In this document: one piece after another, positions 10,802-57,700 of the stretch
Position numbering within the stretch: position 1 is the first letter of the stretch
How the letters are laid out: each line of letters opens with the position of its first letter
NCBI GenBank assembly: GCA_012064415.1
Contig: SSNU01000147.1
Span: 70,117 to 134,116, forward strand
Length of the DNA: 64,000 bases
Direction: 5' to 3'
Source of the DNA: Gyrodactylus bullatarudis
Taxonomy: Eukaryota; Platyhelminthes; Monogenea; Gyrodactylidea; Gyrodactylidae
Made by a program: the position numbers and the translations under genes
The notes under the pieces: model-generated
What the model was told of the DNA's origin: nothing
Seen by the model: the letters and a program-made list of their open reading frames with translations, nothing else
The model's database searches: none

Positions 10802-12765
10802 ATAGCCAAGGCAAATACAAAATGTTTCTAAATCTATTCTATTATATTGCAACGTGTACTCTAGTTACTTCTATTATTTGTAATATTAAAAAATAATACT
10901 TCTACTGAATAAAAAGTGTGTTCGAAAAACTTCTATCAAGTGTAAAGTTTATTATAAATACACTTCTATTGAATGAAAATGTCCTAATAATCTTCTATTT
11001 TTTGTGAATACTCTGAATAGACCTTCTGGTTATTGATGATTTATGTTCTGCTTTTTGAAGATTTCATCTAGAAGCTTCTACTTTTTTTAATAATCCGTAT
11101 TTTTCCTGATAAACACAGTTATTATTTGAACACCATTCAATCGAGGATTAAAAATTAAACGATCCTACCAAAATTTAATGTTCGATTCCAAAAGAAGCAA
11201 CTTGAAAATCCGTTTAAATTTTTATCAATGAAAACTTTTTGAACTGGGTAAAATCAATGTGTGTCCTATGATCTTGATTTCAAAAAATCCTCATCATTTT
11301 TGATTTTTTGAAGAAAACTTTGAGACTTTTGTAAAGAATCCATAAATCCCTATCTTCATATCATTCACTTATTTTTTCTTCAATTACACCTCAAAAAAAT
11401 TCTTAATGCAAATAAAGATACACACAAGAATAACCTTAAATGTATGTAGTTTGACCTATGAATAAAATTATTCCCAACTACTAATTCCAAGTAAGCAAAT
11501 TGAACACATGATGGATTTTTCAAAATTTTCCTGCGATTTTCAATAGATAAGAATGGAATTTTTTTCATGTTCATAGTTTTTTCCTAGGGAAAATGTTCGT
11601 TTTATTCTGTAAAAAAAACTTATCGATATTATCATTATTATTTACAAGAAAACACAAATATTGGATATATCAATTAAGAGAGCTAGAAAAAAGTAGTTCA
11701 ATATTTATTTATCCTTAATGAATGCAATAGAATGATAGGTTTTGTTTTGTAACTGTACCTGTATAAAGAAACTGAAAGTAATCCTCAATAATCCCTAAAC
11801 TAGAAGTTATAATATTTAAAAAATGAAATCCTTATCGTCGAATTGATTCGGAATATGTTTCTGGAAGTTTTACGAAATTCAGGCTATTATATCCTCGAAT
11901 ATTTGATAGGCCTAATTGAATAGGTAAATAAATGGAAATTTAGGCAGAAATCCACTATTCTCTCTTATCTAGAAATATTTAATAGCGATTGGATCCAGTG
12001 TTTAACTATCGATTTCGTCTCCAAATTATAGATTTTGATAATAAAAATATCTAGAAAATATACTTACCTATTTTTCACCGGAGCCATTGATGTTGGCTGT
12101 TTTGATCTCTTCATATTTTCCTCTGATTTTGTATCTTTTTCAAATAATAATAATTCAAGTCATTCATTTTTGATAATAAATCCAAATAGTAAATCTTTTA
12201 TGCAAAGATAAGGAGGACTCAACTCATTTTCTAGTTCAATGGTAGTCTAGAAGTATTTTTCCTCTGATAGCATTCCATATCTCTTTGCGTGAAACTTTAT
12301 TAAAAACGGGGCGAGAAATTTCTTTCTTATTGAGAAAAATTTTCATCCTTATCCAATAGGATTTACTCAATTCTGATTGGTCCAACAGAAACTCTTGAAT
12401 ATATTCATTAGGCCTGAAATATTAGTTTAATAATTCATTATTAACCATTCATCTTTTACGACTACTCATAAATGATTATAAAAGTTATACATCTTTGTTT
12501 GAATTCAGGGATCATCATCTTCTTTATTCATTGAGGCAGAGAGGAATTATTCATAAGTATTTCTTGTTCATTCTTGCAATTTATATTTTTTCTGATGTTC
12601 TTTCATCATATTTTACATCGGTACTTCATCTCTATTGTCTGATTCTTTGTATTTAAGATTAAGAATGATCTGAGAGAAATATTTTCTTGTCAATTTTAAT
12701 AAGCATAAATTTGTAGATTCAGGATCAGGGTCAAACTTCATGCTTATTAATTCTCACGTTCTTGT
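10802..12765. other. gene-free stretch
   Basis: No ORF with family resemblance, RNA gene or transposon end that I can support. Confidence 0.5.
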
Positions 12766-12767
12766 CG

Positions 12768-13170
12768 GATATATTACCTAAGGACCTAGAACGAAATATT
12801 TCTAGTTAACCTCTGTAAGTATAGGTAAGTATAGAAAACTTTAGGGCTAGGCCACAGGATATAGAAGTAATCCGAGTTGCATGGACGAGTGGATTGAGTA
12901 TTGAACTACAATTCGAGATGTCCTAGGTTCAAATCTCAGGTTGTGGCATACTGACGAGTACAAAAAGAGGACGAAACGCTCGTATATGTCTACCATATTT
13001 GTATACTTAGAAGTATACTTAAAGTGAGTTTCTTTCGTACCAGTCTCTCTAACATTCAGCGACATAAGCTAATCCATAAGACGTTTCTGTGGGATATATT
13101 ACCTAAGCACCTAAAACGAATTATTTCTAGTTAACCTTTGTAAGTATAGGTGCTGCACTATTCATTACTT
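12768..13170 (+). mobile_element. tRNA-headed SINE-like element with hammerhead ribozyme
   Basis: In order: a tRNA-like head at about 12877-12946, with an A-box-like TGGACGAGTGG and a B-box-like GGTTCAAATC; a hammerhead ribozyme at 12945-12994; then a body with the words CATTCAGCGACAT and GGGATATATTACCTAAGCACC; and a tail ending GTGCTGCACTATTCATTA. The body and tail are shared with the element at 56.8-57.25 kb. About 57 bp ('ggatatattacctaag..' to '..gtaagtatagg') appear as a direct repeat before the head (12768-12827) and in the body (about 13092-13151). The promoter-like boxes suggest RNA polymerase III transcription. Confidence 0.65.
12945..12994 (+). ncRNA. hammerhead ribozyme, type I (SINE-borne)
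   Basis: The conserved core CUGANGA is present as CTGACGA (12951-12957; position 7 may be any base) and GAAA is at 12973-12976. Stem I pairs CATA (12947-12950) with TATG (12985-12988). Stem II pairs GTAC with GGAC with one mismatch. Stem III is only A76-T83, C77-G82, G78-C81 with a 2-nt loop, which is too short to close well in a monomer. The predicted cut is after GTA (12984/12985). Very short stem III is known for hammerheads in Penelope-like elements and small retrozymes, which are thought to work better as dimers. Confidence 0.7.
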
Positions 13171-13319
13171 ATTAATTCTGTCAATCAATTTTTATTTTCA
13201 ATAGGTAAGATACCAAATGTTTTGACCCAATTTTAAATAAATCAGCAAGTTTTCATTTAATTTGAATATTCTCTACGATTCTTAGTAGAGTGGATCACTC
13301 CAGGATACCAAAAACATAT

Positions 13320-13497: not shown

Positions 13498-13698
13498 TAA
13501 TATATAGTGGTCGACAAAATGAATTTATTCACTTAAAATTGCTTCTAGCTCATTCATAAAAAATACCTTCAAGATGTAAAATATACCATTAAAAAGGAAA
13601 TTTCTTACTCTTCTAGATATGATTACTCCCGAACTTTTATGAATGAGCTAGAAGCAATTTTAAGTGAATAAATTCATTTTGTCGACCACTATATATTA
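13498..13698. mobile_element. palindromic MITE with long perfect TIRs (Tc1/mariner-like)
   Basis: The two arms (13498-13561 and about 13636-13698) are perfect reverse complements for about 60 bp, beginning TATATAGTGGTCGAC. The centre of about 75 bp is not palindromic. Ends at TA and long simple TIRs are typical of Tc1/mariner MITEs. It encodes nothing. Confidence 0.7.
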
Positions 13699-30876: not shown

Positions 30877-31112
30877 TTTCAAAAACGTCCGAGCATCCAC
30901 TTAAATTCATAATTTAGATTAATTAAGAATTTCTCTTTAACCCATACATCTATGCTGTCATCACATGGATTTTTGTAAAAAATAGAAAAGTTCGAAACTG
31001 AAGCAGCATGTTTCTCCTGTTTGATATGCCTAGTTATTGCAGTGTCCTTGTTCAGATGATCACTAGATCTTGTAGACAGCTTCCTAATTGTTCTACCTAT
31101 GTAAGATATTCA
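30877..31112 (-). pseudogene. Penelope-like GIY-YIG endonuclease C-terminal fragment
   Basis: Minus-strand translation gives YIGRTIRKLSTRSSDHL, the second half of a GIY-YIG nuclease motif with its conserved Arg. It then gives ITRHIKQEKHA and the tail KNPCDDSIDVWVKEKF, then a stop. GIY-YIG behind reverse transcriptase is the architecture of EN+ Penelope-like elements. The first Tyr motif and the RT are absent, so this is a truncated copy, lying between two copies of the host element TIR. Confidence 0.65.
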
Positions 31113-32013: not shown

Positions 32014-32984
32014 ATGGATAGTTTTAGTCTTGATAAAATTTACCCGTCTGTTGATGATGCTAAGAAATGCGTGCAGCTTCTTGCTGTAAAAATTCAAAGA
32101 GATTTCCTGGTGAAAAGAAATGATAATACATCCATGGAGTATAAATGTACGGAGAAAACTTGTCCGTTTAAAATTAGATTTTACAAAAAGCGAGACGGAA
32201 CTTTACACTTAACTCAAGTATTAGAACACACATGCACCATTGTAAGTAATATTTTATATTATTTTAGATTCGAAATACTCCGAAGAGTTTTTTACGAAAA
32301 GAACTTATAGAACCATTGAACAATCAAATAGAAAACTTCAAACCAAGAGATGCTCAAAGTGTTTTAAAATCTCAACATGGTTTATCCTCAAGTTATCATC
32401 AAAACTGGAAAACTTTGCGTAAATTGAAGCAGAAAAATGATACAAATATCCTCAATTCTTTTCATAAGCTGGAAGATTTTTTAAACTGGAATTTCCTAAA
32501 TAATCCTGGGACTTTTATCGATTTGAAGACGACTGACAACCATGAACTAGAAATTTTTTACTTTTCATTCGGACATTCGATAAATTCATTTAAGCTGACT
32601 CCTCCTCTTATAGCTCTTGATGGGTGCCATATGAAGAGACAATGCAATTACACCATCCTAACCGCAACCGGAATCGATGGTAATAGCGAAATATATCCTA
32701 TCGCTATTGCGTTAGCTCCCAACGAAAATTACAAATACTGGTCAATTTTTATCAAGAATCTCGAAAATTCTCTCCAACTACGAAACTGCAAAGATTTGGT
32801 AATAATTTCCGACAGAGAAAAAGGTCTATTGAAATCAGTATCTGATATTCTCCCAAATGCTAACCATTCATTTTGTTTGTTTCATATTGGTAAAAATATT
32901 AAAACAAAATTTCGAATCAACGTCAATAAACTTTTGTGGAAAGCAGCAATACGAACATGTTTTATCAATGTTTGCATTTATTAA
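32014..32984 (+). CDS. MULE transposase (truncated), with apparent 26-bp intron
   Basis: Exon 1, 32014-32241, starts MDSFSLDKIYPSVDDA and holds a FLYWCH/WRKY-like zinc module (CTEKTCPFKIRF ... HTC). Exon 2, 32268-32984, holds the MULE catalytic core: first Asp in PPLIALDGCHMKR, second in LVIISDREKGLL, then the CLFHIGKN helix. The frame requires removal of 32242-32267 (GTAAGT...TTTTAG, 26 bp). The product stops soon after the CLFH motif, before the third acidic residue and the SWIM zinc finger usually found in the family. This copy is therefore probably inactive or needs a further exon. Confidence 0.8.
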
Positions 32985-49000: not shown

Positions 49001-51736
49001 CTTGGCGGCTCAGTTTTATCCAATCAGATTAATAATATTGCAGTTTGACAAATTATGTAAAATTCAGTAAAATCTGTGTTTGAGTTTGAAATCCCAATCA
49101 AGAGAAAATTGGTTCGAATCCCTTGCTTAAGACGCACAATCATAATCCGTTTATTATTTGCAGTTGTTTACAGAGCCAATTCATGTTTTTGCCTATCAGT
49201 ATCATGCTCACTACCATGGTAGTGCAATTGAATCTGTAATAATGCATGAAAATAATACAATCCGGGAAATACTCAGTCGAGACATGCAGTTTTCTCCATA
49301 CCTCCCGGAAATTCGAAATTTTTATCCAGCTGTAACTATCCATCCAGTTAGTTTAAAGAATTCATTATCACCCATGATACCACTTTCGTGTCATAAGTTT
49401 TAAGTATTGCAAACAATATTTTAGAAAAATAAGGAGGGTTATCAGGTACATTGAGGAATACTGGCCCCTTTTTATTTCTCTTGCCGCGAGAGATTCGTTT
49501 TCATGTTATCAATGTTAGAAAGCCTTTTTGATATTCATGTACATGTAAAATTGACATGAAGATGAGAATTTACAATTTTTACAAAATAATTCAATATTTT
49601 TCTCTAGATACATGAAGAAAGGCGATGCCAAGTTTATTAAAGAATAGCGCTTTATTTCGTGGCATACTCATCAGCTTTTACATGCCAGATTTATATACAA
49701 AAATTTGTGTTTCTGGTTTGGGGTTGGGAATTGATTGTGATATCTTCCTTTTCTTCATTCCTTTGCGTTGTTTTTATTGTTGCTCTGGGGAGGGTTAATG
49801 GTTTGACGGCTGATTTTTGTACACAGAGGTTTGGCTTTTCTTTTTCAATGAATAGAGCTTCTGCTGTCTTGAGAGCTGTTAAGTTTTTCCCTGCTTGCTT
49901 GTAAAGAATTTCAAAGTTTAAAGGGGAAGCTTTTTCTTGACATGCTCTCAAATGTTCTCTTACTGTTCTCTATTTCGGATAAAGATTTCGAACTTCTTCA
50001 TTATAATTAGCTTAAGAGAAACTTGTTGTTTTCAAGAGAAAGTTAAACTTCTAAATTTTGGATAATTTTTTTTCTTCGTGATAATCAAAACTTTCAAAAG
50101 GTTCGATTTCCCACAACGACGACGAGTTTCTGTGAATTTCTTTAGGCGTATTAGAAATCTTTTTCTACTCATGATTTTGAGCTCAATCGTTAAAAAAGTG
50201 GTATTCAATTCCAATAATTCTGAGCAATAGATATCGAGAATCTTAACAACCAATCAAAATAGCTCATCTCTTTCCTTTTCAATTCCTCCTAAATAAGAAA
50301 TTGTAACCTTTCTTTAGAAGATTTCATGCTGTTTCATCCGAAAGAGCATTTTTTCGAATTAAATCTGTTGTAGGTTTTAATGGTATATTTCGGCATAAAC
50401 CTATTGAAATTTGCTTATGAAGCGAAATAATTTTTTTCGTTCTAGGTCAATAAAACAGACACCATTCGATGTAGAGTGAAAATTTCTTCGATTTACCTGA
50501 GTTTTATACAAAATTTTTATAGTAAATTCTCTTATTCAATATCAACTAGCCTTATGAGGGAGTAAATGTTCTGTAGATTTGCCGTTTATTATAATTATAA
50601 TTATGACTTGACTTTGTTCATTTTTAGGGTGAAAGTATCCTAACTAGGTGCATATATGATACATCGAATGAAAACCAGACGATATTCCAAGGATTCTCTG
50701 ACACTAATGAAATGTGCATCAATTTCCTCTTCTACTATCCCAAGCAAGATATTGAAGTTTGCAAGACTCAGGTTTCCCGAGAAGCTCTGAATGACTTCTT
50801 CAAAAGAGAATTCAAGTAAGGCTAATAATTTATTTCTCACTTAGCATCAAAGGCTCAAACATTTATGACATGTATAATAAAATGAAATGGAATCAAAAGT
50901 CTGGACATGCTTTCGGTGTATTTCTAGAAAATACATTCCATGAGGTAACATGTAACACGTCAAGCGGCCAGAGACATGAAGTAATTTAGAGTCTTTTATG
51001 ATTTCATTTGAAAAAAATTTCCAAAAAGAAATGCAAAAAAAGAAAAGATTTTGCAGATGCAATCAAACCTTTGATAACAAAGATTTCTGTGGTCAATTAA
51101 ATAGAAATTTCTCCTGAAAAACTTTCATTGCGGTTATCTTCGGAAAGTTTTTGGGTCTTTTTTGTATTATTAATGATCATTCATCAATGAGAAATTAATT
51201 TTGATTTAAATCACTATGCAACAAGGTACCTCAATTGAAATTAATATTATTACACCTCGTGTTCAAGTATTTACCTCGTCGACTTTTTTGAGAATTTCTA
51301 TCTTTGTTGATAGTTGATAGTTTTAAAAATTGAGATGAACTCTAACCTTGATGCTATATTAAGAAACTGTGTTTTTTTTCAAATGATTTTCAGAACAGAG
51401 AGAATAGCTGGTTCAAATTAGGATTTCAATACAGTGAGTTGCATAGATAACGCCTCATGAAGTTATCTCGAGGCGTTAACTCGCCGTACTTTATGCGGCT
51501 CTAATTATAATTTGTTAAAAGTGAACCGGAGTTTTATTAGCTTCATCTCATCTTTTTCAATTCCTTACCAAACTACCCTGACCTGGACTAAGAATTTATT
51601 TATTTTATTTCAGAAAAGTCCTATCATCGAACCTATAATTCAATTTCCAACTTATCCTGATCCAACTCTCACAAATCGAGACAAGAAATGCATAAGAACC
51701 CTCGATAATTATAAGGAACAAATATCAGAGGGCTAA
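46068..51736 (+). CDS. copper monooxygenase, DBH/MOXD1-like (8 exons)
   Basis: Exons: 46068-46478, 46947-47117, 47789-48052, 48079-48351, 49164-49346, 50628-50815, 50845-50980, 51614-51736; 582 residues, all phases agree. A signal peptide is followed by a DOMON domain (DDTTRVFGK near its end). Next is the copper type II ascorbate-dependent monooxygenase core with all expected copper ligands: HH in DIIHHIELF, H in VMEIHFNNP, HAH in YQYHAHYHG and M in TNEMCINF. The family hydroxylates substrates such as dopamine in secretory vesicles or ER; the substrate here is unknown. No C-terminal anchor is seen. A 26-bp intron (48053-48078) restores GAALKGFKFPQNAGIKIP, and a 29-bp intron lies at 50816-50844. 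The longer introns carry repeats. Confidence 0.92.
47195..47690. repeat. fold-back repeat in monooxygenase intron 2
   Basis: The word ACCAATACAAGCCAGAAGACA (47627 region, plus) is mirrored at about 47262-47285. 'TTTGAACCAAGTATAGTTC...GGAGCTGTTGGGCATAGAT' (47196-47228) recurs at 59930-59985, followed at 60027-60072 by the same plus-strand word. So a second, partial copy exists in the CFAP44 intron at 59.9-60.1 kb. Confidence 0.55.
48400..48880. repeat. family A fold-back copy in monooxygenase intron
   Basis: Both arms contain 'ggcg(c)caaattctcatttttt...aactttg' words in opposite orientation (about 48510 and 48800). The centre has 'gatcacgaatagacaaaaaacaaat' and 'gatcattttccctacttgaaaatcgatg'. 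It lies between exons 4 and 5 and explains most of that intron's length. Confidence 0.6.
49639..49678 (-). ncRNA. hammerhead ribozyme motif directly after a GIY-YIG ORF
   Basis: Minus strand: CTGATGA (49674-49668) and GAAA (49658-49655). Stem I pairs AAAG (49678-49675) with CUUU (49642-49639). Stem III pairs AUA with UAU around AAGCGC, with the predicted cut after UAUU (49643). Stem II is weak (GU/AC only). The motif starts about 13 nt after the stop codon of the GIY-YIG ORF on the same strand, the position expected for a ribozyme in a Penelope-like element 3' region. The conserved GAAAUAAA...CG string is shared with the copy at 15546-15589. Confidence 0.6.
49691..49990 (-). pseudogene. Penelope-like GIY-YIG C-terminal ORF fragment
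   Basis: The minus-strand reading contains VREHLRACQEKASPLNFEIL and ALFIEKEKPNLCVQ, the usual end of GIY-YIG nucleases in Penelope-like and related retroelements (helix with ...EHL, then E.L.I...KP.LN). The N-terminal nuclease motifs and the RT are not found upstream, so the copy is 5'-truncated. The stop (49691-49693) is followed by the hammerhead. The plus-strand ORF over the same bases is its shadow. Confidence 0.6.
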
Positions 51737-54700: not shown

Positions 54701-57700
54701 AATATTCAACGGTGGCAGATGTAGACGTGATACGTCCCCATTAGGACTCGTCAGTATACCATAGCCAGTATTAGGACCCGGATGTCCAACAATTTGGATG
54801 CTTATGGATATAATTATAATAATTACCTGTGACCACACTTTGATAGTAAGTTAAATTTCTAAAATCTATCGAAACTATTGAAACTCTATCATTTTCATTC
54901 AAAAAAAATTTTTCATTCATACAGAGATATATAAATTTAAGATTTAAAAAAATAAACTGATATTTTAACCAGGTTTCAACCTTTCAGGACTAATGTCCAT
55001 AAGCCGACTAAACTATTGATGCTAAGAATTACCTCTTACCCTTTTGATGCTCCCCAAAAATTTAGATGTGTATAACCTTCTTAAGCTAAAAATAGGTCCA
55101 CATCCAACAAGGGACATATCAAAATAATTCACAATAGTAATACACAATATTACACAAGCAAAGTTAGCTCATGTCATTAGACTCAAATTTTAATTAGAAT
55201 TAATTTTATACTTATAGATTCTCAACTGTAATAGTACTTCTAATAATAGAATTATTACAAAGAAGAGGGAATTATTTCTCAAAGTACTTTAAAAGTTCTT
55301 TTCTTTTGATGAAATCTTCTAATGCAAGCATTCTTTTCCTCTTTAAGCTCCTCTAATTCCTTGTTGAAGATGGTCTTCTCCATTTTCTCAATGTTGAATA
55401 CGCAGCCAAACTTTTTCATTATTGTCCGGCGACATTCAATTTTCATCTTGCGAATCTTTTCCATAAGATCAACTTTGGTTCTCTTTATGCTAGCGTAATG
55501 ATTCTTTAGATCATGGTACTCCTTGCTATCCTGGGATTTCTCATTTTCCAGTTGACTAATTTTCTTTTTGAATTCTTCCATATTCTCATGAGAGAAAATC
55601 AAATAATCATTGAAATTCCTTGTCAACTCTTGAATGTCTGTGTTCTTTATCTTGTTGGAGTCTAGTAACACTGTCACATCTATCTCATTTAGTCTTTCAA
55701 ACTTCTTTTTCTATGTAATAAAAGCTTTTGTTGAATTATGACCAGGAAATTACATCGGTCTAGATTCTTGGGTACAGATAAGAATTTTTTGATAATGGAT
55801 TAGTTTATTTCACTGAAAGTTACAGCTTAGAAATGGGTTCTAAATTTAGAATTTATCAAAGTATAAATCTTTGGCAGACATATTTTGTAAGCGGTAACAT
55901 TCAGCAACATGAGCTAATTCATTAACAAATAATTCGGAACTAGGGGATATATTACCTAAGCAATTTTAGAATCTACAATGTAGATACATTTATGGCTATG
56001 AGATAAAGTGTGAAATGTTTCTTCAATATAATTAATTAATAGCTATTACTAAAGTAATAAAATGGGCAGTAATTTTGCTATTTTGGATATGATTTCGGAA
56101 TTTCAATTCGAGTTCTTTCTTAGACCTTCAAAAAGTCTCGGGATAATTTTGCTAATATTAGCTAGTAATCTAATGAAAATGCTATTCTTGAGAAATGCTA
56201 TTTTAGAAATAAAGGTCTATAATGGAACTATAGATTGAAAATTTACATTTTGACTAATAATCTTCTCATCTATTAGTTCGAGTTGTGTTTCACACCTGTG
56301 GATCTCTTCGTTAATCTTATCGTATTCTTCCATATAGCTATTGAGAAGATTATTCTTTTCATTTAAAACACTCTGTATTTCCTGGCGTTTATACCGAAGA
56401 TTCAAGACAAATTTAAAGTCTTCATAGGGACAACCTTGGGGACATTCATCAAGGTTTAACAAATTCATGTAGTTATCTTCAGAATTGTCAAAGTCAAAGT
56501 CGTCTGAAATGTCCCCATTAGTGAGACTGAAAATGCTTTCATTCCATTCACTTTTTGCTTGGATGAAAATGAAAAAATTTCAAATTACAATGAATAATTT
56601 TGTATCAAGGCACTAAATGTGAAAAAAACTCCGTAAGAGTTCTGTGACAAATTTTTAGATATATACTTTCTCTAACCAATCAGAAACATATTGGAATTTT
56701 AATAAATTTTTCAGTTTTAATTAGAACTGGAAAATTTAAATAAAATCCTCAAACCTGATTTATTAAATAAAATTTTATGAATATCATTAATTAGAAATTT
56801 TTCGTTCTGGGTGCTTAGGTCGTATATCCCACAGGAACGTCTTATTTGGTAATGGACTAGCTCATGTCGCTGAATGTTACAGCTTACTAATGGATCCCAC
56901 GGAGACTAGTACGAAAAGAAAACTTACAAAGCATTTAGAAATAATTTAAGTATACATATATGGTAGACATATACGCGCGTTTCGTCCTTTTTCTGGACTC
57001 ATCAGTATGAACCTCGGACCTCTCGCATTGTAGACCAATGCTCATTCCACACGCCCAACATCCCATGCAACTCGGATTACTTCTAGGTACTTTTCGTACT
57101 AGTCTCCGTGGGATCCATTAGTAAGCTGTAACATTCAGCGACATGAGCTAGTCCATTACCAAATAAGACGTTCCTGTGGGATATACGACCTAAGCACCCA
57201 GAACGAAAAATTTCTAGTTAAACTTTGTTAGTATAGGTGCTGCACTATTCATTAATATCATTAATATTGATTAGAGCTACCTAAAAGTTATATTTGATTA
57301 TTTTTATTTTTTACTGAGTAAGTTTTGCTATTTTCCAGTATATAAATACTAATGATTTATGAGTCATGAAGAAACCTTGATATATCCCTTTGATAGCAAA
57401 GAAAAAGTATACAGGTTCTTATTAATTTTGGACGATCACACTGATCGAACAAAACCCTTTTCTTTGAAAACAGAAAAAACCTATTAATTAGGGGATTGAA
57501 CCAAAATTTCTCATTGGCTTAGGCTGTTGATAAACCTTGGTATTTTAATTAGTTTGTTATACACGCAGAAATATTATACCTTGTTGGCGAATTAAAAATA
57601 AAATTATGCATGGTAACTTTTTTGAAACGATCTTCTAATGCTTTCGAAACTACTTTACTTTTCATTTTTGAAACTAACTTGACTTCTGAGTTTTTTCAGA

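What the first reader, a model, noticed from the sequence alone, without database searches (positions are those of the whole stretch)
56962..57013. Intact type I hammerhead ribozyme inside a tRNA-headed SINE
Seen: a complete CUGAUGA...GAAA core, a perfect 4-bp stem II, a stem I of 4 bp plus extension, and a GUA cut site, immediately behind A/B-box-like tRNA sequence. Known: hammerheads occur in schistosome SINE-like repeats, Penelope-like elements and retrozymes. Inferred: this family links RNA polymerase III-type transcription with self-cleavage, which would release unit-length or circular RNA. The self-complementary ACGCGCGU stem III points to a dimeric active form.
Basis: partly seen in the sequence, partly recalled or inferred. 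Interest (0 to 1): 0.88.

Follow-up and report, generated by a model that had tools for sequence, protein, structure and literature searches.

The report
Self-cutting RNA repeat, Penelope-style insertions
A short non-coding jumping repeat in a Gyrodactylus-type flatworm carries a predicted self-cutting RNA, and its copies sit in the genome in the same odd back-to-back way as Penelope retrotransposons, which points to the enzyme that probably moves it.

Summary
The hammerhead is real: minus strand, 57009-56968, cut predicted between 56972 and 56971. Rfam scores this copy below cut-off (26.8 v 34 bits), but the genome holds 58 exact core matches against 0 in a reversed control and 29 hits above cut-off. 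The host is Gyrodactylus or close kin by COX1. The motif belongs to a 380-nt unit with A/B-box-like sequence at tRNA spacing, like schistosome Sm-alpha and metazoan retrozymes. Of 56 sampled insertions 39 are two head-to-head copies, 3' ends outward; 16 have an exact 11-13 bp duplication, against 0 of 4000 mismatched controls. In 28 of 29 pairs with both ends classed, exactly one end bears a ~33-nt tail. Penelope-like elements of this genome show the same pattern in the few pairs seen, and it is published for Penelope. I conclude: a non-autonomous retrozyme/SINE moved by Penelope machinery, which supports a published but unproven proposal. Circular template, Pol III transcription and self-cleavage remain inferred; no Penelope element sharing the unit's sequence was found. 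The window copy has lost much of its B box and part of stem I.

The parts
56792..57253 (.). whole insertion: two head-to-head partial copies of the 380-nt unit
   Evidence: inverted arms 99% complementary; unit alignments; flanking duplication
56780..56791 (.). left target-site duplication AATATCATTAAT
57254..57265 (.). right target-site duplication AATATCATTAAT
56792..57099 (-). long arm, unit u19-u347: tRNA-like region, hammerhead and 3' part; outer 3' end of the 'short' class
   Evidence: the alignment itself runs to 56787, into the duplication
57092..57253 (+). short arm, unit u218-u378, with the ~33-nt 3' tail; overlaps the long arm by 8 nt at the junction
57047..57057 (-). A-box-like sequence TGGGCGTGTGG (family TGGACGAGTGG)
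   Evidence: family counts
57025..57041 (-). anticodon-stem-like hairpin GCATTG-GTCTA-CAATGC
   Evidence: by inspection
57003..57013 (-). remnant of the B box (GGTTCATACTG; family GGTTCAAATCC)
56968..57009 (-). type I hammerhead ribozyme; predicted cleavage between 56972 and 56971
   Evidence: RF00163 26.8 bits at 57008-56969; genome copies
56973..56980 (-). palindromic stem III ACGCGCGT
   Evidence: sequence; dimer folds
12755..13167 (+). second insertion of the family: about 1.2 units in direct orientation, flanked by TSD CTTATTAATTCT (12743-12754 and 13168-13179)
55788..55962 (.). third, decayed head-to-head copy

Best explanation
The finding is one copy of a non-autonomous retroelement family, here called the 380-nt unit: a hammerhead-bearing SINE/retrozyme that uses the enzymes of Penelope-like elements (PLEs). 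Proposed cycle. (1) Units are transcribed, possibly from an internal Pol III-type promoter (inferred). (2) Transcripts longer than one unit fold the palindromic stem III into a double hammerhead and cut to unit length; the pieces may be ligated into circles (inferred). (3) A PLE reverse transcriptase with GIY-YIG endonuclease makes a break staggered by about 12 nt, and cDNA is started from each side at one of two fixed sites about 33 nt apart in the unit (inferred from the end pattern). (4) The two 5'-truncated cDNAs are joined in the middle, often at 1-8 nt of overlap, which leaves a head-to-head pair with one short and one tailed 3' end between 11-13 bp duplications (the end product is shown by the anatomy of the insertions; the order of steps is inferred).
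For: Hammerhead core repeated 58 times, control 0. Of 60 loci were duplicates; of the 56 left, 39 have arms in - ... + order, 17 have one orientation only, none + ... -. Exact duplications of 11-13 bp in 16 of 56 (15 of the 39 pairs) v 0 of 4000 mismatched pairings. Of 39 pairs, 28 are short+tail, 1 short+short, 0 tail+tail, and 10 have at least one unclassed end; p 5.6e-8 against independence at one half. In 35 pairs made of exactly two segments the inner ends of the arms differ by more than 20 nt in all 35; 21 junctions overlap by 1-8 nt, 2 abut and 12 have a gap of 1-11 nt. PLEs of the same genome encode RVT_1 (54.4 bits) and GIY-YIG (21.8 bits for the single protein, just under its cut-off of 22.6; 19 genome matches over cut-off). 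Their 3' ends fall at q272-279 (10 of 43) or q315-326 (29 of 43; the query stops at 326), and the three opposite-strand pairs with both ends classed (C354, C179, C28) are short+tail. L082 is also short+tail. Of four PLE loci tested for a duplication, L079 has 12 bp and L082 11 bp; L087 and L088 have none. Published marks of rotifer Penelope are inverted pLTRs, a 31-bp tail optionally at one of them and, where present, TSDs of 9-10 bp (PMC3846280 section 6). Seven of 56 loci carry a segment that crosses the unit boundary by at least 40 nt on both sides, as a multimeric or circular template would give. A compact hammerhead-like core (CTGANGA, 6-9 nt, GAAA) is present in 14 of 16 PLE loci held, which are 14 distinct places, 12 of them with the core.
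Against: No PLE sharing the unit's 3' end was found: against 16 PLE loci the only significant matches are in L074, where they are a unit insertion about 1.4 kb from the PLE frame; nothing else is better than E 1.4. Most PLE places of the genome were not read. Loci were best candidates only, chosen for their hammerhead or body, so frequencies are not genome frequencies. End classes were set after seeing the data. The two arms of a locus are only slightly more alike than arms of different loci (0.950 v 0.926; best match within the locus in 2 of 28, tied in 2), so one shared template molecule is not shown. The hammerhead is no better conserved than the rest of the unit (0.960, core 0.949, v 0.919-0.961). 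Two of four PLE loci tested show no TSD, and the PLE sample is small. No segment exceeds 1.24 units.
Confidence: 0.75

Rival explanations
1. A SINE moved by a LINE through ordinary target-primed reverse transcription, with inverted copies arising by twin priming.
For: A CR1-like LINE frame lies near one hammerhead copy (L069; class judged by inspection), and TSDs of 11-13 bp are within the range known for LINEs (recalled).
Against: Twin priming inverts an upstream part and leaves one 3' end (recalled); here both outer ends are 3' ends and the arms overlap in sequence. The one-tail rule and its occurrence in PLEs are unexplained.
Confidence: 0.08
2. A MITE or foldback DNA transposon with long terminal inverted repeats that happens to contain a hammerhead.
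For: In the window the arms look like 132-nt terminal inverted repeats, 99% complementary, and are flanked by a TSD.
Against: Arm lengths and inner junctions vary widely between loci, the two outer ends differ by the ~33-nt tail, and a direct 1.2-unit copy with a 12-bp TSD exists (window 12755-13167).
Confidence: 0.05
3. PLE-mobilised, but head-to-head pairs form by fold-back self-priming of one cDNA on an antisense template, as proposed for rotifer Penelope (PMC3846280 section 11), not by priming from both sides. This rival shares the PLE part of the best explanation.
For: Published model for PLEs; head-to-head orientation agrees with it.
Against: Simple fold-back predicts that both arms start at nearly the same unit position (my inference); 0 of 35 pairs do so within 20 nt. 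Palindromes at the junction were not sought separately.
Confidence: 0.15
4. The hammerhead is a passenger inherited from an ancestral retrozyme and plays no part in present mobility; templates are uncut read-through RNAs. Compatible with PLE mobilisation.
For: The hammerhead is no better conserved than its flanks; stem I and the B box are damaged in the window copy; segments up to 1.24 units fit linear read-through RNA as well as circles.
Against: The three most variable positions from u131 to u170 are ones a hammerhead tolerates: the N of CUGANGA (u135) and two loop II positions (u143, u147); these also distinguish subfamilies, so they may be few events. Hammerhead-like cores recur in the PLEs.
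Confidence: 0.25

Closest known systems
Sm-alpha / Sj-alpha SINE-like elements of Schistosoma (Ferbeyre 1998 and Laha 2000, seen only as cited in PMC2770079 and PMC8490949)
   Same: flatworm, short repeat, tRNA-related sequence with a type I hammerhead
   Different: Sm-alpha is estimated to exceed 10,000 copies and is classed with tRNA-Gln-TTG (PMC2770079 passages). Here there are 376 tail matches, no recognisable tRNA and mostly head-to-head insertions in the sample. Direct sequence comparison with Sm-alpha was not possible.
Metazoan non-LTR retrozymes (PMC7229834 passages, PMC7761336 sections 8 and 9)
   Same: 150-450 bp repeats with type I hammerheads, GC below 50%, TSDs longer than 4 bp when present; proposed PLE dependence
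   Different: those are described as tandem repeats without promoter and without a motif that betrays the autonomous partner; here promoter-like boxes and a PLE-type insertion pattern are present; circular RNA untested
Penelope-like elements with GIY-YIG endonuclease (PMC3846280 sections 6 and 11)
   Same: head-to-head inverted arms, a ~31-nt tail at one end, TSDs near 9-12 bp
   Different: the unit has no open frame longer than 66 codons, so no RT or endonuclease, and shares no detectable sequence with the PLE loci held here
Minimal dimeric hammerheads of PLEs (Luense 2017, seen only as a reference)
   Same: self-complementary stem III
   Different: the unit's hammerhead has a 4-bp stem II and an outer stem I extension; its predicted dimer gain exceeds the shuffle mean, which is not so for four PLE motifs

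Membership tests
Type I hammerhead ribozyme (RF00163) | CUGANGA and GAAA core, stems I-III, open at stem I | tested here: met
Type I hammerhead ribozyme (RF00163) | score above Rfam gathering cut-off | tested here: inconclusive
   window copy 26.8 < 34; 29 of 57 genome hits above it
Type I hammerhead ribozyme (RF00163) | self-cleavage | not testable with these tools
   needs an RNA assay
Metazoan non-LTR retrozyme | type I hammerhead in a repeat of 150-450 bp, GC below 50%, no protein-coding region | tested here: met
   380-nt unit; 41% GC, longest open stretch 66 codons in six frames of the repeated unit
Metazoan non-LTR retrozyme | units in tandem | tested here: inconclusive
   7 of 56 loci cross the unit boundary by >=40 nt on both sides; none reaches two units
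Metazoan non-LTR retrozyme | circular RNA of unit length | not testable with these tools
   no RNA-seq
Sm-alpha type tRNA-derived SINE | tRNA-derived Pol III promoter | tested here: inconclusive
   A box (at most 1 mismatch) + exact B box at tRNA spacing in L045, 1 of 20,000 shuffles; of 24 segments spanning the region, 8 have the exact B box, 14 TGGACGAGTGG, 4 both; ARAGORN 0 in 20 loci; no Rfam tRNA
PLE-type integration | head-to-head inverted arms | tested here: met
   39 of 56 loci
PLE-type integration | tail on only one of the two inverted ends | tested here: met
   28 of 29 classed pairs, 10 further pairs unclassed
PLE-type integration | single TSD around the pair, length as for the genome's own PLEs | tested here: met
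   11-13 bp in 16 of 56; of four PLE loci tested, L079 12 bp, L082 11 bp, L087 and L088 none
PLE (autonomous element) | RT and GIY-YIG endonuclease ORF | tested here: not met
   no open stretch over 66 codons in the unit; the PLE ORF lies in other loci
SINE with shared partner tail | 3' end shared with an autonomous element of the genome | tested here: not met
   no match better than E 1.4 in 15 of 16 PLE loci; L074 holds a separate unit insertion; most PLE places not read
MITE / foldback DNA transposon | fixed identical terminal inverted repeats | tested here: not met
   arm lengths and ends vary

The most novel reading that the evidence does not exclude
Penelope enzymes integrate hammerhead-processed circular RNA by priming cDNA from both sides of one staggered break, each side starting at its own fixed site about 33 nt apart on the circle, and joining the two cDNAs. 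Retrozyme circles would then be natural templates of PLE machinery, and the tail found on only one end would be the footprint of a two-site priming complex common to PLEs and their non-coding parasites.
Probability: 0.3. Interest if true: 0.82.

Novelty: new variant of a known kind. Interest (0 to 1): 0.6.

Why it matters
How metazoan retrozymes move is open: PMC7761336 (section 9) states that the repeats show no conserved motif that would reveal the autonomous partner, and section 8 names PLEs/Terminons as likely candidates from co-occurrence. Here sampled insertions of one family carry the architecture of PLE insertions, with a quantitative one-tail rule that can be tested in any assembled genome with retrozymes. 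It also adds a monogenean to the flatworms with a tRNA-like, hammerhead-bearing repeat. It bears on PLE integration itself, since unequal inner ends speak against simple fold-back. On print: 'hammerhead ribozyme' with 'gyrodactylus' found 0 papers in the held library; retrozyme + Penelope-like + inverted found 4, of which I opened passages or sections of two; Penelope-like/SINE/head-to-head/tail found 398 with three of the four terms, of which 12 were listed and none opened. No listed title or abstract start reports this pattern, but subscription papers are mostly not held.

Tried and rejected
Chance motif: rejected by genome counts. RT genes near hammerhead copies as partners: two RT matches that I noticed within about 2 kb of a copy on the same strand, among the 150 scored of 1528 candidates, were a CR1-like LINE and a gypsy-like element, judged by reading their open frames. 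A 3' end shared by the unit and a PLE: not found. tRNA by ARAGORN or Rfam: none. TTTT avoidance as a sign of Pol III: the unit has none, but 16-20% of shuffles have none either. One template per pair: not shown. Stronger conservation of the hammerhead: not seen. A cluster of inner ends near u117-131, just 5' of the hammerhead, was seen, but loci were chosen for an intact hammerhead or body, so it may be selection bias. PLE hammerhead dimers: fold gain no larger than the shuffle mean for the four tested. Dropped rows: L001-L008 (from the loose pattern, not family members) and four duplicate loci (L017, L021, L032, L038) were left out.

Full report
What was checked. The motif stands at the given place on the minus strand. 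Rfam places Hammerhead_1 at 57008-56969 with 26.8 bits (E 0.027 for the window; 4.2e-4 for a 1-kb stretch). That is below the gathering score of 34, so the default scan lists nothing. Taken alone this would be weak. Taken with the genome it is not: 57 hits at E<=1e-3, 29 of them over the cut-off (73 of 11,180 candidates scored), and 58 exact core matches with 0 in the reversed control.

Where it is. The window lies in a 77.3-Mb eukaryotic assembly of 471 contigs. A mitochondrial COX1 read with the flatworm code is 90% identical to a cluster of 68 named for Gyrodactylus albolacustris, 85-86% to the next three (Macrogyrodactylus, Cichlidarus, Paragyrodactylus) and 73% or less to the rest of the listed 120 (7994 candidates sharing most words were scored). 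The host is therefore a Gyrodactylus or a close relative, a monogenean flatworm. The species was not determined.

The unit. A natural copy in L042 repeats after 380 nt. Numbered from GTAAGC, it has a leader of about 60 nt, an A-box-like stretch at u62-72 (TGGACGAGTGG in 14 of 24 segments; L042 itself differs), an anticodon-stem-like hairpin (u78-94), a B box GGTTCAAATCC (u106-116), the hammerhead (stem I from u125, core u131, cut after u164), and a 3' part ending either near u345 or near u378. GC is 41%, and the longest open stretch in six frames of the repeated unit is 66 codons. In L045 the two boxes match at tRNA spacing, the A box with at most one mismatch; 1 of 20,000 letter shuffles does so (the criteria were chosen after seeing the sequence). 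ARAGORN finds no tRNA in 20 loci. Rfam finds none in 17 loci at E<=0.05, nor in a 181-base stretch of L044 at E<=10. Of 24 segments spanning the region, 8 keep the exact B box, 14 the A box, and 4 both. So the tRNA-like character is suggestive, not proven. In the window copy 17 nt are missing, which damages the B box and shortens stem I from six pairs to four.

The ribozyme fold. For a family copy, the hammerhead fold scores -9.6 kcal/mol against an MFE of -11.2. Two strands together give -37.3, and the predicted structure is the double hammerhead with an 8-bp stem III. The gain of -14.9 compares with -7.7 +/- 3.3 for 60 letter shuffles, the largest of which gained -19.9; L009 behaves alike (-14.1). 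For the window copy the predicted dimer also pairs the 8-bp stem III (gain -18.1, beyond all 60 shuffles), but the rest is not the hammerhead fold.

The insertion pattern. The 60 loci brought (30 each) include 4 duplicates; 56 were analysed. They are best-scoring candidates, not a random sample. Thirty-nine consist of two arms in head-to-head order, both 3' ends outward; 17 show one orientation only; none is tail-to-tail. Exact duplications of 11-13 bp flank 16 of 56; with left and right flanks taken from different loci, 0 of 4000 reach 11. At 8 bp or more the figures are 24 of 56 against 3.2%. In the window the duplication is AATATCATTAAT at 56780-56791 and 57254-57265, so the 99% inverted repeat and the hammerhead between them are one insertion of 462 bp.

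The one-tail rule. Outer 3' ends fall in two classes: 'short' (u330-362) and 'tail' (u368-u8). Of 39 pairs, 28 have one of each, 1 (L015) has two short ends, none has two tails, and 10 have at least one end outside both classes. In L015 the letters after the right end (TAACGCACTATTC) look like a tail with a deletion. If the ends were independent at one half each, 28 or more of 29 would have p 5.6e-8. The classes were drawn after seeing the data. The tail is on the shorter arm in 19 and on the longer in 9. In the 35 pairs of exactly two segments the inner ends of the arms are never within 20 nt of each other; 21 junctions share 1-8 nt, 2 abut and 12 have a gap. That fits two separately started cDNAs joined by end joining better than simple fold-back.

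Template length. Seven of 56 loci have a segment crossing the unit boundary by at least 40 nt on both sides. The window holds another such copy at 12755-13167, with its own 12-bp duplication. The longest segment in the sample is 472 nt, 1.24 units. This needs a multimeric or circular template but does not tell which. Arms of one locus are on average 95.0% identical, against 92.6% between loci; the best match lies within the locus in 2 of 28 (the window copy being one) and is tied in 2. A shared template molecule is therefore not shown. The hammerhead region is as conserved as its surroundings (0.960 v 0.919-0.961; its core 0.949).

Penelope in the same genome. A GIY-YIG search gave 19 matches, all marked over the cut-off. 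One locus (L075) has a 732-residue open frame with RVT_1 (54.4 bits) and GIY-YIG (21.8 bits in hmmscan, just under its cut-off of 22.6). The protein finds 68 matches, with 61 of 4141 candidates scored. Its 3' region searched in the genome gives 43 matches (40 of 878 candidates scored): 29 end at q315-326 (the query stops at 326), 10 at q272-279, 4 elsewhere. Of four opposite-strand pairs, three (C354, C179, C28) are short+tail and one (C307) has an internal end. L082 is again short+tail. Of four PLE loci tested for duplications, L079 has 12 bp and L082 11 bp, in part overlapping element letters at the edges, and L087 and L088 have none. The published description of rotifer Penelope gives the same marks: inverted pLTRs, a 31-bp tail optionally at one of them, TSDs of 9-10 bp in some insertions and none in others (PMC3846280 section 6 read). 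A compact hammerhead-like core (CTGANGA, 6-9 nt, GAAA) is found in 14 of 16 PLE loci held (14 distinct places, 12 with the core; L074 and L083 without), with complementary stem I and largely self-complementary stem III by inspection in those I looked at. The predicted dimers of four of these gain no more than shuffles.

What is not there. Against 16 PLE loci the unit matches significantly only in L074, a separate unit insertion about 1.4 kb from the PLE frame; all else is E 1.4 or worse. The partner is therefore named at the level of the machinery, not of an element.

Comparison with what is known. Schistosome Sm-alpha and Sj-alpha already combine tRNA-related sequence and a hammerhead (PMC2770079, passages; PMC8490949, passages; PMC4918200, passages). 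Metazoan retrozymes are short repeats with type I hammerheads expressed as circular RNAs (PMC7229834, passages), for which PLE mobilisation was proposed from co-occurrence (PMC7761336 sections 8 and 9) and repeated as a possibility in a curation guide (PMC8969392, passages). A review was seen in passages only (PMC6155905). The 2014 paper on PLE hammerheads (PMC4209133) is not held. The present family resembles a retrozyme and inserts like a PLE; the circular RNA that defines retrozymes was not testable. I file it as a new variant of a known kind.

Verdict. The hammerhead and its SINE-like family are certain as sequence; PLE-type integration is well supported for the sampled insertions; self-cleavage, circularity and Pol III transcription are inferences.

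Noticed in passing
12743-13179: Second insertion of the same family, direct 1.2-unit form with TSD CTTATTAATTCT; stem II of its hammerhead has a mismatch.
   Followed up: partly
55788-55962: Third, decayed head-to-head copy of the unit; no hammerhead hit there.
   Followed up: no
49624-49963: PLE remnant on the minus strand: a piece matching residues 638-695 of the PLE protein at 49790-49963 and of its 3' region at 49624-49690; another PLE piece at 30915-31103.
   Followed up: no
32316-32984: Open frame matching MULE/Mutator transposase.
   Followed up: no
L087 and other PLE loci: Stem I of the PLE hammerhead-like motifs differs between PLE families but stays complementary (UCACA/UGUGA, ACAAG/CUUGU, GAGG/CCUC, ACCA/UGGU), by inspection.
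   Followed up: partly
unit u117-131: Inner ends of arms pile up just 5' of the hammerhead (15 in the u120-139 bin, the largest bin); may be selection bias or a reverse-transcription stop at the tRNA-like region.
   Followed up: no
13515-13681: Inverted repeat scored weakly as microRNA precursor families on both strands, all below cut-off.
   Followed up: no
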